Shown one piece after another: positions 4,005 through 6,784 of a stretch of DNA of 6,784 nucleotides. This stretch comes from an uncultured Candidatus Saccharibacteria bacterium. GTDB lineage: Bacteria; Patescibacteria; Saccharimonadia; Saccharimonadales; 2-12-FULL-41-12. The notes beneath the pieces were generated by a model that searched no databases, was not told the origin of the DNA, and worked only from the letters and a program-made list of their open reading frames with translations. Numbering within the stretch: position 1 is the first letter of the stretch; each line of letters opens with the position of its first letter. The stretch is taken from NCBI GenBank assembly GCA_946478995.1, contig CAMLDK010000050.1, positions 1 through 6,784 of the forward strand, given 5' to 3'. Made by a program: the position numbers and the translations under genes.

Positions 4005-4013
4005 ATTTTTTCC

Positions 4014-4039
4014 TTTTTGTTTTTATTTTTGTTTTTGTT
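4014..4039 (-). repeat. A-rich hexamer tract before ftsL (copy 1 of an exact 26-base repeat)
   Basis: On the plus strand this reads T5G, T5A, T5G, T5G, TT. The copy at 5066-5091 before rsmH is identical over 26 bases. On the transcript it is a run of A5C and A5U units lying just before the ftsL Shine-Dalgarno. It includes the AAATAAAAAC motif (4028 to 4019, 14 bases before the ATG). Confidence 0.7.
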
Positions 4040-4145: not shown

Positions 4146-4162
4146 ATCTCCCTTTCTTTTTT

Positions 4163-4172
4163 GTTTTTATTT
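4163..4172 (-). promoter_or_regulatory. AAATAAAAAC leader motif at the rsmH stop
   Basis: The motif overlaps the last codon and the TAA stop of rsmH and runs into an A-rich stretch that leads to the AAAGGGAG before the 19-codon ORF. It lies 17 bases before that ATG and is identical to the copies before mraZ, rsmH, ftsL and mraY. Confidence 0.4.
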
Positions 4173-5045
4173 TCGCTGCGCCACCCTTAGCTTAGCGCTA
4201 CGGGCACGCGGATTAAAAACAATTTCATGTTCACTGCTAACGACCGGCTTTTTGGTCAGTATGTGCAGCCTGGCATCATATCTTTTTCCTCCGTAGTCTT
4301 TGAAGAATCGTTTCACGATCCTGTCTTCCAGACTATGGAAAGATATGACCCCTAACCTGCCTCTTGGTTTTAAAATATCCAGCCATAATGGTAAAGATTC
4401 CCTGAGCTGGTTTAGCTCGTCATTCACAGCTATGCGCAATGCTTGGAATGTAAGCGTGGATGGGTCTATTTTCCTTCTTTTGTTTGCAAGTTGTGCAATT
4501 CTTTTACTCAATTCATCCGTATCTTTATAAGGACGCCCTCCTACTATATGCTCGGCTAGCTTATAAGGATTTCTTATCTCGCCGTACCGGCGAAGAATAT
4601 CGCTGATTTCTTCTACTGGAAAATCATTGACTATCTTATTCGCTGTCAGCTTTTGGCCTTGGTCCATACGCATATCTATAGGCCCTCGCTTGCTGAACGA
4701 AAAGCCTCTTTGTGGATTGTTAAAGTGCTGGGACGAAACCCCTAAGTCCGCCAAAATCACGTCAAACTTCTTTCCCGCCTCGCTTAAAGTCCGGCTGGCA
4801 GCCAGAAAATCATTATGCAGTACAGCTAGATGCTGATCCAGGCTGAATTTATCCCTTAGGAAACGGATAGCTTCGATATCGCGGTCGACAAGCGTCATCG
4901 AGCCTTCCTTACCCAGATGTTCTTTTATGGCTGTGGCATGTCCGCCATAGCCTGCCGTCAGATCAAGATAGCTTTCGCCCTTCGCGGGCTTTAGCAGCTC
5001 TATAACCTCGGTCAAAAGAACTGGGATGTGTTTTTGGTGATTCAT
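4167..5045 (-). CDS. rsmH: RsmH (MraW), 16S rRNA C1402 N4-methyltransferase
   Basis: RsmH is a cytosolic AdoMet-dependent enzyme that methylates N4 of C1402 in the 16S rRNA decoding centre. At 292 residues it is slightly shorter than the usual 310 or so, but complete. Landmarks are HIPVLLTEV (6-14), the AdoMet loop DLTAGYGGHA (28-37), ILADLGVSS (97-105), FSFSKRGPIDMRMD (115-128), TFQALRIAVNDEL (199-211), ISFHSLEDRIVKRFF (234-248) and the C-terminal NPRARSAKLRVA (278-289). The start agrees with the family N-terminus, but no Shine-Dalgarno is visible (GATCACCG before the ATG). Instead a long A-rich tract precedes it. In most bacteria rsmH follows mraZ closely; here 545 bases of apparently structured sequence come between them. 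Confidence 0.97.
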   Translation of the reverse strand: MNHQKHIPVLLTEVIELLKPAKGESYLDLTAGYGGHATAIKEHLGKEGSMTLVDRDIEAIRFLRDKFSLDQHLAVLHNDFLAASRTLSEAGKKFDVILADLGVSSQHFNNPQRGFSFSKRGPIDMRMDQGQKLTANKIVNDFPVEEISDILRRYGEIRNPYKLAEHIVGGRPYKDTDELSKRIAQLANKRRKIDPSTLTFQALRIAVNDELNQLRESLPLWLDILKPRGRLGVISFHSLEDRIVKRFFKDYGGKRYDARLHILTKKPVVSSEHEIVFNPRARSAKLRVAQRK

Positions 5046-5065
5046 CGGTGATCTTATTTTACAAT

Positions 5066-5091
5066 TTTTTGTTTTTATTTTTGTTTTTGTT
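5066..5091 (-). repeat. A-rich hexamer tract before rsmH (copy 2 of the exact 26-base repeat)
   Basis: Identical over 26 bases to 4014-4039 and again immediately upstream of a gene. It contains AAATAAAAAC (5080 to 5071), 25 bases before the rsmH ATG. The A-richness continues to about 5095. As rsmH lacks a Shine-Dalgarno, this tract is the obvious candidate for its ribosome-loading site. Confidence 0.7.
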
Positions 5092-5092
5092 T

Positions 5093-5120
5093 TTTATAAG
5101 GTCACCTATTCAGCAGTCAG
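5093..5120 (-). promoter_or_regulatory. Weak candidate promoter for rsmH
   Basis: CTGACT (5120 to 5115, 4 of 6 to TTGACA) and TATAAA (5098 to 5093, 5 of 6 to TATAAT) are 16 bases apart. Transcription would begin near 5086 in the A-rich tract. The -35 falls inside the 3' arm of the long-range helix, so the sequence may be conserved for RNA pairing instead. Confidence 0.25.
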
Positions 5121-5361
5121 TTTTTTGTTTTTGCTATAGTTTTTGTTTTTGTTTATTCGCATGTGGGTCAAGCGAATATGGTTGTCTGGCCGTATGTAAA
5201 GGATGTTTGTTAAAGATTTGAAAAATCTTTTGAAATCCTTACTTCCAGGACAACTAGAGACTTATGTGTGAGGTGGAGTTTTGGGAGGTGTTTTATAGAA
5301 AGAGCGAGGGTTTTTTAAGTGGTTACCCTAAGTCCACTTACTGACTGCCGAATAGCTAACC
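5100..5361 (-). ncRNA. Candidate structured RNA domain between mraZ and rsmH, family unknown
   Basis: In minus-strand RNA, bases 5355 to 5340 pair with 5121 to 5106 as a 16-bp helix with one G-U. After one G-G mismatch a further 5 bp (5361-5357 with 5104-5100, one G-U) extends it outward. Inside lie, in order, a possible H-type pseudoknot (5307-5339), an unpaired stretch with two CACCTC copies, a long imperfect hairpin (5181-5254) and a 7-bp hairpin (5154-5160 with 5172-5178). An A-rich tract (5121-5153) closes the loop. The two wobbles would be A-C mismatches on the plus strand, which favours minus-strand RNA over a DNA inverted repeat. It may be a cis-acting leader of rsmH or a processed ncRNA. 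I do not recognise RNase P RNA, tmRNA, SRP RNA or 6S RNA. The mraW motif of Actinobacteria occupies a comparable place, but I cannot show homology. Confidence 0.45.
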
Positions 5362-5375
5362 CCAAATTTTGTACC

Positions 5376-5557
5376 ATATAATCCTGCTTCCCGGCAAAGC
5401 CGGAAACCCTGATTATATTTTCGGCGCATTGCTGCGTCAGATTCTCCGGTAATCCTTTACCGTATCGGCAATACGGCTCAGTCCTTTCCTCAAATCTTCC
5501 TTGCACTGCTTCCGAATACAAACTTTGGATTCATTTCTTCGAGCTAGGATGAATCAC
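5376..5557 (-). other. Hairpin series downstream of mraZ, probably part of the same RNA
   Basis: Read on the minus strand there are four successive stems. The first is 7 bp (5528-5534 with 5549-5555). The second is CCGTAT/ATACGG (5460-5465 with 5471-5476), followed by a 4-bp stem with a GCAA tetraloop (5425-5436). The fourth is an 8-bp outer stem (5376-5383 with 5411-5418) holding an 8-bp inner stem (5388-5395 with 5399-5406) that includes one minus-strand G-U. An alternative stem CGGTAA/TTACCG (5447-5452 with 5457-5462) shares bases with the second, so the two exclude each other. The GNRA loop and the wobble both read correctly only on the minus strand. No gene that I can support lies here. 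Confidence 0.45.
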
Positions 5558-5590
5558 TTCTGGTTTTTGTGATTGTTTTTTAAAGTACGC

Positions 5591-5980
5591 TTAAACACTC
5601 TTTGCAGACTTATTGGCCTCGGCAGGCGACATCAGCCTCCAGTATGAGCCAACCCCTACGGCGACAATATCCCTATCGATACCGCTGTAATCCAGCAGGT
5701 GCTGCTCGATTGTAATCCGCCCCTGCTTCTGATCCAGCTCAGCTTCGATCTTGCCCGTTCTAAAACGAACATTCAGATCAGCTATCCGCTCATCTAGAAC
5801 ATCGCCGTCCAGCTTGGGTTCTACCCTCCTATCCCAAATATCCTTGGGATATAGGTGTAGATACTTGCCGAATCCACGGGTGACTACTGCTCCACTCACA
5901 AACTGATGTCTAAGCTCCGGCGGTATGGTTAGCCGGCGCTTTTCATCTAGTTTCCTCTCAAAGTAGTCTACTGCGGCCAT
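5591..5980 (-). CDS. mraZ: MraZ, AbrB-fold transcriptional regulator of the dcw cluster
   Basis: MraZ forms a ring-shaped oligomer that binds short direct repeats upstream of its own gene and adjusts dcw transcription. The 129 residues hold the expected two AbrB-like repeats, about 5-50 with DEKRRLTIP (12-20) and about 79-120 with ELDQKQGRITI (81-91). The family's DxKGR core is intact in the second half as DQKQGR, but is DEKRR in the first, where Arg replaces the usual Gly. The length is a little under the common 140-150. The start matches the family N-terminus; no Shine-Dalgarno precedes it (TTAAATAT before the ATG). A leader of about 125 bases holds four candidate MraZ boxes, a hairpin and an A-rich tract. 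The gene opens the cluster, after a converging-free 234-base gap from the HAD gene on the same strand. Confidence 0.93.
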   Translation of the reverse strand: MAAVDYFERKLDEKRRLTIPPELRHQFVSGAVVTRGFGKYLHLYPKDIWDRRVEPKLDGDVLDERIADLNVRFRTGKIEAELDQKQGRITIEQHLLDYSGIDRDIVAVGVGSYWRLMSPAEANKSAKSV

Positions 5981-6055: not shown

Positions 6056-6101
6056 CCTACATTTACCCACTGAAGATAGTTTACTACCCACATAATCCCA
6101 C
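6056..6101 (-). promoter_or_regulatory. MraZ operator: four GTGGG-type boxes
   Basis: On the minus strand the boxes are GTGGG (6101-6097), GTGGG (6091-6087), GTGGG (6070-6066) and GTAGG (6060-6056). Their spacings are 10, 21 and 10 bases, so all face the same side of the helix. MraZ of E. coli is known to bind TGGG-type repeats at 10-base intervals upstream of mraZ. These boxes lie 76-121 bases before the mraZ ATG and just past the predicted start site, where binding could repress transcription. Confidence 0.75.
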
Positions 6102-6214: not shown

Positions 6215-6784
6215 TTATATATTGATTTCAGAGAGGCTTTGAATGACTTTAATCGATGAAGGTAGCGAGTACTGACTTTTGCTTCCAGCCCTATCAAGTA
6301 AATAGCCTTGGCATACGGACGGCAGGTCTTCAAAAGCGATTTCCCTGTCGTCCACCAATACACACTCATCATATACGCCCAGACCAGATACATTTGGGTT
6401 GATTTTATTTCCTTGGTACCAATTTTTTATCAGGCGTCCTTTATACCTGTCCTTGATGATAACCAGAGGCGTGCCAGCAAAACCCGCAGCCTCTATCTTT
6501 AGAATCTGCCACTCATCATCCACACCATAAGTTAAGATTACATGATCTAGGGTTTTAGACTTGATCTTCCCTATAAAGTCCGGGCTGTCTGGAAATAGAA
6601 GCCCCCCCTCTGCAGCAAGTTCAATAAATATTTTCTTAAACTTTTCCAGGCTCTCTCGGGTTTGTCTCGAAATGTATGTAAGGGGGCTATAGGATATATC
6701 TTCTTTGGCGAGCTTTGCATACTCACCGCGTATCTTATTGAAATCAATGTCCATCTGACGGCATGTTTGTTCGGTCAGAGCTAA
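6215..6784 (-). CDS. HAD-like hydrolase, 3' part (start outside window)
   Basis: The frame stays open to the window edge: ten codons (LALTEQTCRQ) precede the first internal ATG at 6754. So 189 C-terminal residues are visible and the true start is likely outside. Counting from that internal Met, the remains of a haloacid dehalogenase core are visible: hydrophobic strand plus VILTYG (72-77, motif II Thr75), lysines near VIIKDRYKG (98-106, motif III), and CVLVDDREIAFEDLP (131-145, motif IV acidic pair), followed by GYLLDR (150-155). The helical stretch at 25-60 would be the cap. The nucleophile motif DxDxT should lie beyond the edge. Such proteins are phosphatases of many kinds and I cannot name the substrate. 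The gene points the same way as mraZ but is separated from it by a promoter region, so it is probably a separate unit. Confidence 0.6.
   Translation of the reverse strand, partial: LALTEQTCRQMDIDFNKIRGEYAKLAKEDISYSPLTYISRQTRESLEKFKKIFIELAAEGGLLFPDSPDFIGKIKSKTLDHVILTYGVDDEWQILKIEAAGFAGTPLVIIKDRYKGRLIKNWYQGNKINPNVSGLGVYDECVLVDDREIAFEDLPSVCQGYLLDRAGSKSQYSLPSSIKVIQSLSEINI

What the first reader, a model, noticed from the sequence alone, without database searches (positions are those of the whole stretch)
5100..5361. Long-range 16+5 bp helix enclosing a structured RNA domain between mraZ and rsmH
Bases 5106-5121 and 5340-5355 are complementary over 16 positions with one G-U, and 5100-5104 and 5357-5361 add five more pairs beyond a single mismatch. 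Both imperfect pairs are G-U only in minus-strand RNA, the direction in which the operon is read. The enclosed 218 bases hold further stems. mraZ and rsmH are usually adjacent, so a 545-base insertion with this much pairing implies a functional RNA: a cis-regulator of rsmH and the genes after it, or a separate ncRNA. I recognise no known family.
Basis: partly seen in the sequence, partly recalled or inferred. Interest (0 to 1): 0.72.

Follow-up and report, generated by a model that had tools for sequence, protein, structure and literature searches.

The report
Conserved rRNA-like leader RNA before rsmH
Between two cell-division genes of Saccharibacteria lies a strongly conserved, folded RNA that the public RNA library searched does not hold; it is laid out like the start of a ribosomal RNA transcript and probably controls the gene that follows, a ribosome-modifying enzyme.

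Summary
The window comes from a Saccharibacterium. The long-range helix P1 (24 pairs, 5097-5121 with 5340-5364, minus strand) closes an RNA conserved in class Saccharimonadia: a covariance model hits 349 of 392 genomes, nearly always once; the 30 best-scoring hits of a phylum-wide scan all lie directly upstream of rsmH. Covariation is decisive: 25 of 29 pairs show compensatory changes, 360 covarying cells against 73 in shuffles; a sequence-only alignment agrees. Inside are a covarying pseudoknot, a nearly invariant single-stranded CACCUCCCAA, AAGUCUCU and A-rich strands. A boxA like those of the class's rRNA leaders lies between mraZ and P1 in 100 of 138 loci (4.6% in shuffles), though weak in this window. 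NusB is found in 12 of 12 genomes, Rho above cut-off in 0 of 12. A related leader occurs in 11 of 14 loci read in another Patescibacteria class. Rfam has no match. Best reading: a cis-acting leader of the rsmH/dcw operon that folds with NusB-S10 help, like pre-16S rRNA. An excised trans-acting RNA is not excluded. The RNA is shown; the mechanism is inferred.

The parts
5591..5980 (-). mraZ (129 aa), upstream gene
   Evidence: Pfam MraZ E 6.8e-14
5574..5588 (-). boxA-like GUACUUUAAAAAACA directly after the mraZ stop (weak in this window)
   Evidence: 6.6 bits with a matrix from six Saccharibacteria rRNA leaders; 13% of shuffled spacers reach 6 bits. At 8 bits or more in 100 of 138 loci
5365..5545 (-). 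accessory module between boxA and P1, found in 5 of 138 loci including this one; limits approximate
   Evidence: L082, L115, L144, L154, window; not part of the conserved element
5097..5364 (-). the conserved RNA element
   Evidence: model R1 match, 140.9 bits, E 7.7e-33
5340..5364 (-). P1, 5' strand
5097..5121 (-). P1, 3' strand (24 pairs, one G.G mismatch)
5317..5339 (-). hairpin H1 (AAGUGG / CCACUU)
   Evidence: helix 3: 5 of 5 pairs with changes on both sides, 91.0% of cells paired
5325..5329 (-). pseudoknot 5' strand AGGGU in the H1 loop
5307..5311 (-). pseudoknot 3' strand ACCCU
5299..5305 (-). internal boxA-like GCUCUUU
   Evidence: G[ACT][AT]C[ACT]TT here in 133 of 138, shuffled 2.3% (the pattern was set after seeing the loci)
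5283..5290 (-). nearly invariant single-stranded CACCUCCC (anti-Shine-Dalgarno-like)
   Evidence: CACCTCCCAA with at most 1 mismatch in 139 of 142; predicted unpaired probability 0.84 here, mean 0.82
5268..5276 (-). second C-rich motif CCACCUCAC
   Evidence: not found within 1 mismatch in most of the divergent subgroup
5256..5263 (-). AAGUCUCU motif
   Evidence: exact in 134 of 142
5156..5255 (-). variable hairpins (limits approximate)
   Evidence: poorly alignable between relatives
5122..5155 (-). conserved A-rich strand AAACAAAAACAAAAAC...AAAACAAAAAA
   Evidence: consensus
4167..5045 (-). rsmH (mraW), 292 aa, first gene after the RNA
   Evidence: Pfam Methyltransf_5 E 6.3e-87

Best explanation
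It is the 5' leader RNA of the rsmH (dcw) operon and acts in cis. Shown: a conserved RNA with a long-range helix P1 of about 25 bp enclosing a pseudoknot, exposed C-rich motifs and A-rich strands, next to rsmH in every locus examined for it, in most loci preceded by a boxA. Inferred: as RNA polymerase leaves mraZ, NusB-S10 binds boxA and holds the nascent leader near the polymerase until the 3' strand of P1 is made, as in pre-16S rRNA, so that P1 and the pseudoknot form; the folded leader then sets how much RsmH (and the genes after it) is made, coupling a 30S-maturation enzyme and the division operon to the supply of NusB/S10, i.e. to ribosome assembly. In the related class P1 itself reaches into the rsmH start region in about half of the loci read, which would make P1 formation the repressing state there; in Saccharimonadia P1 ends a median 55.5 nt upstream, so the output step (cleavage of P1 by RNase III, mRNA stability, or access of ribosomes) is open.
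For: Structure: 97.1% of 2861 cells paired, 25 of 29 pairs with double changes, 0 of 500 shuffles equal, slid versions at most 50 covarying cells against 360 (100 of the 142 loci, alignment fitted to the model); sequence-only alignment of 136: 436 double-change cells against at most 161 in 100 permutations; pseudoknot own 11.91 against swapped 11.02 sd 0.19, maximum 11.61 of 200. Linkage: the 30 best of 36 R1 hits of the phylum scan have rsmH downstream on the same strand (30 of 30), mraZ upstream in 25 of 30, so the RNA stays with rsmH when mraZ is not detected. boxA: 100 of 138 at 8 bits or more with a matrix from rRNA leaders, 4.6% shuffled, starting a median 15.5 nt after the mraZ stop and ending 27 nt before P1; internal boxA-like motif 133 of 138. 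NusB in 12 of 12 genomes, Rho above cut-off in 0 of 12, so boxA here is unlikely to serve Rho suppression. A run of five T within 60 nt after P1 in only 2 of 138, so no general intrinsic terminator before rsmH. Related leader in 11 of 14 loci read of another class, P1 ending -7 to +3 from the computed rsmH start in 6 of these 11. Precedents: Nus complex on non-rRNA leaders (PMC5725501, passages); leader-trailer helix over 17 bp critical for active 30S (PMC10250234, passages).
Against: No expression or binding data. The window's own boxA is weak (6.6 bits) and 209 nt from P1. 38 of 138 spacers do not reach 8 bits, and the matrix was made after the motif had been noticed upstream of P1, two of its six members being picked by eye. 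The distance from P1 to the rsmH match varies from 19 to 248 nt, not what a fixed-geometry translational switch would need. A predicted alternative pairing of the P1 3' strand with the rsmH start was tested and not supported (own 14.68, swapped 14.53 sd 0.18). Rho absence rests on 12 genomes and one family model, which itself passes its cut-off in only 8 of 14 control genomes.
Confidence: 0.45

Rival explanations
1. A separate ncRNA cut out of the mraZ-rsmH transcript (P1 would be a good RNase III substrate) that acts in trans: its exposed CACCUCCC, and in most species CCACCUCAC, pair with Shine-Dalgarno sequences of mRNAs.
For: CACCUCCC is nearly invariant (139 of 142 with at most 1 mismatch) and predicted single-stranded (unpaired probability 0.82 against 0.58 for the inner region); CACCUCC also recurs in 3 of 60 leaders of other Patescibacteria lineages; the gap to rsmH varies widely.
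Against: Linkage to rsmH (30 of 30) is not needed for a trans RNA; no general terminator of its own; trans targets not tested. In the related class the motif is CAUCCAYCUC in 10 and AAUCCACCUUU in 1 of the 11 leaders, not CACCUCC.
Confidence: 0.25
2. Autogenous control by RsmH: the leader imitates the enzyme's rRNA target (16S 1396-1404 ACACCGCCC against ACACCUCCC; numbering recalled).
For: ACACC-N-CCC is shared and the gene is rsmH itself.
Against: Not significant: the RsmH site ranks 79th of 1440 30-nt windows of one 16S, and whole-core alignments to six 16S genes score no better than shuffles (p 0.14 to 0.98). From recall, RsmH acts on assembled 30S, not naked RNA.
Confidence: 0.06
3. A riboswitch-like aptamer for a small molecule of wall synthesis or ribosome metabolism.
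For: Conserved single-stranded core and pseudoknot upstream of an operon.
Against: No general terminator, no species-specific pairing with the start in Saccharimonadia; boxA points to the Nus machinery.
Confidence: 0.12
4. A DNA-level feature: MraZ operator or mobile-element ends.
For: mraZ is next door in 25 of 30 loci.
Against: Changes keep the pairing of the minus-strand RNA, antisense scores are far lower, usually one copy per genome in a fixed place, present without a detectable mraZ.
Confidence: 0.02

Closest known systems
pre-16S rRNA leader (boxA plus leader-trailer helix), PMC10250234 (passages)
   Same: boxA of the form found in the class's own rRNA leaders, then a long-range helix of more than 17 bp that closes a domain
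   Different: encloses about 200 nt, not 16S rRNA; followed by an mRNA; processing untested
suhB leader and other Nus-controlled mRNA leaders, PMC5725501 (passages)
   Same: boxA in the leader of a protein-coding gene with a translation-related function
   Different: here also a covarying long-range helix and pseudoknot; no Rho found above cut-off in 12 genomes
mraW RNA motif, Rfam RF01746 (table row of PMC2864571, passage)
   Same: by its name tied to mraW = rsmH (its place upstream of mraW is recalled)
   Different: listed for Actinomycetales; no cmscan match to the window or 12 relatives' loci
UpsM, 5' leader sRNA of the dcw cluster of Rhodobacter, PMC5089854 (abstract)
   Same: long RNA leader in the dcw region, possibly acting in trans
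   Different: upstream of mraZ, made by a Rho-independent terminator, reported for Rhodobacteraceae only

Membership tests
Any Rfam 15 family | match at gathering score | tested here: not met
   0 matches in the window and in 12 loci of relatives; at E up to 10 only two weak matches in 5000-5620, both outside the element
mraW RNA motif (RF01746) | covariance-model match | tested here: not met
   not among the matches
RNase P RNA or tmRNA in disguise | the genome lacks the usual gene elsewhere | tested here: not met
   each over its cut-off in 39 of 41 genomes
Nus-controlled (boxA) leader | boxA in the leader | tested here: met
   100 of 138 loci at 8 bits or more, 4.6% shuffled; in this window itself weak (6.6 bits), so for the window alone inconclusive
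Nus-controlled (boxA) leader | NusB encoded in the genome | tested here: met
   12 of 12 genomes of the class; the window's own genome is not held
Nus-controlled (boxA) leader | NusB-S10 binds and expression changes | not testable with these tools
   needs experiment
rRNA-type leader-trailer helix | long-range covarying helix downstream of boxA | tested here: met
rRNA-type leader-trailer helix | RNase III processing | not testable with these tools
   needs experiment
Translational switch at the rsmH start | species-specific pairing of P1 3' strand with the start region | tested here: not met
   own 14.68 against swapped 14.53 sd 0.18, 138 Saccharimonadia loci
rRNA-mimic autoregulatory leader | significant resemblance to the rRNA target | tested here: not met
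   rank 79 of 1440
Riboswitch | ligand binding | not testable with these tools
   needs experiment

The most novel reading that the evidence does not exclude
A new class of regulatory RNA in Patescibacteria that re-uses the logic of ribosomal RNA maturation (boxA and NusB-S10, a leader-trailer helix, an exposed anti-Shine-Dalgarno) inside an mRNA, so that the cell reads the state of 30S assembly from free S10/NusB and sets RsmH and the division/cell-wall operon accordingly, in bacteria without Rho.
Probability: 0.2. Interest if true: 0.87.

Novelty: new variant of a known kind. Interest (0 to 1): 0.75.

Why it matters
A strongly conserved non-coding element of a whole class of tiny, host-dependent bacteria is absent from the RNA library searched. 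If it works as proposed it links ribosome assembly to cell division and wall synthesis through RNA, and shows what boxA does where Rho is missing, a question that is hard to ask in E. coli. Genetic manipulation of cultured Saccharibacteria has been reported (PMC10633639, title and passages), so it can be tested.

Tried and rejected
Start-codon switch: pairing of the P1 3' strand with the rsmH start looked convincing by eye in the window and a few relatives, but failed the swap test. RsmH-substrate mimicry: attractive, not significant. Leader peptide: rejected by eye only, the core is conserved at nearly every base and its parts are separated by indels not in threes. Own promoter in most loci: no common -10 position upstream of P1; only the subgroup without detectable mraZ shows a promoter-like TTG..TATACT (by eye). 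First pseudoknot test gave almost nothing (own 10.40, swapped 10.05 sd 0.18, maximum 10.38 of 40) because the script picked the wrong hairpin in many rows; the repeat with the hairpin defined by GUGG/CCAC-type stems (104 of 138 loci, 101 distinct) is the one cited. R1 outside Saccharimonadia: 36 of 379 genomes hit, 34 of them handles known from the class search; the other two (G610, G403) are weak, E 2.4e-4 and 4.6e-4, and were not followed. R1 misses divergent members: G110 counts as no match although its locus L208 matches; on G418 and G518 R1 gives only E 0.05 to 1. Rows dropped: L009 (contig starts inside rsmH); L008, L094, L114, L205 from the 138 (core pattern not met; L094 and L114 end inside the element, L008 and L205 carry variants by eye); 16 opposite-strand or weak rows by a stricter E-value before counting. 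Three genomes are in the 142 and 138 twice (L001/L085, L002/L091, L059/L103). In the 60 further upstream regions, five helices of score 40 or more without the C-rich motif (L276, L277, L289, L304, L329; 20 shuffles reach at most 32) were not counted as the element. Literature: searches listed no paper on this RNA that I recognised; word searches of the main texts of the 26- and 50-genome ncRNA papers found none of Saccharibacteria, TM7, mraZ, rsmH or mraW (supplements not searched). Subscription papers and preprints are not held.

Full report
What the window is. The minus strand reads orf6215-6754, mraZ (5591-5980), a 545-base spacer, rsmH (4167-5045), an ftsL-like ORF, a penicillin-binding protein, mraY and ftsW (mraZ, rsmH, the penicillin-binding protein and a Glycos_transf_4 protein taken as MraY by Pfam, ftsL and ftsW by position and look only).

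The observation. The minus strand folds far better than shuffles (z -7.07).

Conservation. CACCTCCCAA with at most one mismatch is in 139 of 142; AAGTCTCT exactly in 134 of 142. Taking the core as anchor and searching for the best antiparallel arms without a model, P1-like arms were found in 138 of 138. A covariance model R1 built from 14 short elements hits 349 of 392 Saccharimonadia genomes, with two hits in 6 of them, and 100 of 100 upstream loci given to it (the window and 99 of the 142), best on the coding strand. Since R1 misses a genome whose locus carries the element (G110/L208), 349 is a lower bound.

Covariation. On the R1-fitted alignment of these 100 loci, 97.1% of 2861 cells pair, 25 of 29 pairs change on both sides, and 360 cells covary against 73.0 sd 11.1 in shuffles and at most 50 when the partner is slid. 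Because that alignment leans towards the structure, I repeated P1 on a sequence-only alignment of 136 elements: 92.7% paired, 436 double-change cells in 22 of 25 pairs, against 123 on average and 161 at most in 100 permutations, and at most 90 when slid. A subgroup without detectable mraZ (for example L172, L189, L208) has a P1 of quite different sequence that still pairs.

Anatomy. 5' to 3': boxA; (in some loci an accessory module); P1 5' strand; hairpin H1 whose loop pairs with a stretch further on, an H-type pseudoknot (own stack score 11.91 against 11.02 sd 0.19 with partners swapped, maximum of 200 swaps 11.61; 101 distinct loci of 138; an earlier, badly parsed version was near null); a boxA-like G[ACT][AT]C[ACT]TT (133 of 138, shuffled 2.3%); CACCUCCCAA; usually CUCCACCUCAC; AAGUCUCU; variable hairpins; A-rich strand; P1 3' strand. 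By prediction on the element alone CACCUCCC is open (unpaired probability 0.82 against 0.58 for the inner region) and P1 has a mean pair probability over 0.5 in 138 of 138.

Context. R1 hits taken from a phylum-wide scan without regard to genes (the 30 best-scoring of 36, which were given as loci) lie directly before rsmH on the same strand in 30 of 30 cases and behind mraZ in 25 of 30. Runs of five T within 60 nt after P1 are seen in 2 of 138, so the RNA is probably part of the rsmH transcript; P1 ends a median 55.5 nt (19-248) before the matched start of rsmH.

boxA. Of six Saccharibacteria 16S leaders read, four carry by pattern, and two more by eye, a boxA such as GTTCATTAACAATT (that this is boxA rests on the recalled E. 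coli form TGCTCTTTAACA). A matrix from these six finds the same signal between mraZ and P1 at 8 bits or more in 100 of 138 spacers against 4.6% of dinucleotide shuffles, starting a median 15.5 nt after the mraZ stop and ending 27 nt before P1. In this window it is weak: 6.6 bits (13% of shuffles reach 6 bits), and 209 nt from P1. NusB is found in 12 of 12 genomes; no Rho reaches its cut-off in 12, only weak partial matches in 11 of them (that these are other ATPases is my reading; in 14 control genomes the model rings in 12 and passes its cut-off in 8). In E. coli the Nus complex mainly serves rRNA folding and also controls the suhB leader, and about 25% of gene functions with an upstream boxA relate to translation (PMC5725501, passages); a leader-trailer helix over 17 bp is critical for active 30S (PMC10250234, passages). 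The leader here has both elements in the same order.

Beyond the class. In the class of L035 (16 genomes held, no name given; 15 with an rsmH match) 11 of the 14 loci I read (L257-L270; the broken match of G538 was left out) carry a related leader, judged by eye and by the helix search: P1 of about 22-29 bp, AACAUCCAYCUC in 10 of 11 (AAUCCACCUUU in L267), A-rich strand, and in several a boxA; not so L268-L270. In 6 of the 11 (L257, L258, L262, L264, L266, L267) P1 ends -7 to +3 from the computed rsmH start, in L265 at -18, in the rest 38 to 118 nt upstream. In 60 further Patescibacteria rsmH upstream regions, picked by hand from the best-scoring rows listed outside both classes, 3 (L292, L319, L320) have a long-range helix (scores 44-65, 20 shuffles at most 32) around CACCUCC, and 2 (L299, L309) a short helix like that of L035 without it (scores 34 and 33, barely above shuffles). 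So the kind seems older than Saccharimonadia but patchy.

What was tested against my reading. The start-region switch failed. Mimicry of the RsmH target failed. The Saccharibacteria 16S tail reads GGATTACCTCC in 5 of 6 genes and GATGGATTACCTCC in all six, so the leader shares only ACCUCC with its own anti-Shine-Dalgarno region. Two housekeeping RNAs are accounted for: RNase P RNA and tmRNA are each over cut-off in 39 of 41 genomes; SRP RNA and 6S RNA were not tested.

Verdict. A real structured RNA family, not in Rfam 15 and not met in the papers searched, tied to rsmH. The cis-acting, Nus-assisted leader is the best-supported mechanism (0.45); an excised trans-acting RNA with anti-Shine-Dalgarno seeds is the main rival (0.25).

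Noticed in passing
window 5365-5545 (-); L082, L115, L144, L154: Accessory module (GCAAGGAAG ... CUGACGCAGCAAU ... GCCGGCUUUGCCGGG) between boxA and P1 in 5 of 138 loci; a different module (GGGAAGAGCAGCC ... GAUGAGAAACCC-GGGUGUCUC) in 10 of 138 by pattern, L152 doubtful. Possibly further RNA families or mobile repeats.
   Followed up: partly
L172, L177, L189, L193, L194, L197, L200, L208 upstream of P1: Subgroup without detectable mraZ shows by eye a promoter-like TTG...TATACT-type pair, a 5' hairpin with A-rich loop, then boxA and P1: the leader may have its own promoter.
   Followed up: partly
12 Saccharimonadia genomes: No Rho above the family cut-off in 12 of 12 genomes searched.
   Followed up: partly
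window 6066-6101 (-): Three GUGGG on the minus strand upstream of mraZ, two of them 10 bases apart, like MraZ operator boxes (consensus recalled).
   Followed up: no
L001, L003, L154, L176 just downstream of P1: A second copy of a 5'-arm-like sequence (for example AAGATCGGCTAAT) that could pair with the P1 3' strand, in a few loci only.
   Followed up: partly
L299, L309: rsmH leaders in another lineage with a P1-like helix that encloses AAGGAGGGG, a Shine-Dalgarno-like stretch without a start codon behind it.
   Followed up: no
genomes G026, G213, G326: Two rsmH matches and two R1 matches each: the RNA is doubled together with rsmH, or the assemblies are mixed.
   Followed up: no
window 6215-6754 (-): ORF of 179 aa upstream of mraZ without a Pfam match at E 0.001.
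   Followed up: no
window 4009-4035, 4155-4175, 5070-5097: AAAAACAAAAACAAAAA-type A/C-rich stretches (minus strand) before genes, like those inside the RNA; perhaps general ribosome-landing leaders in this lineage.
   Followed up: no
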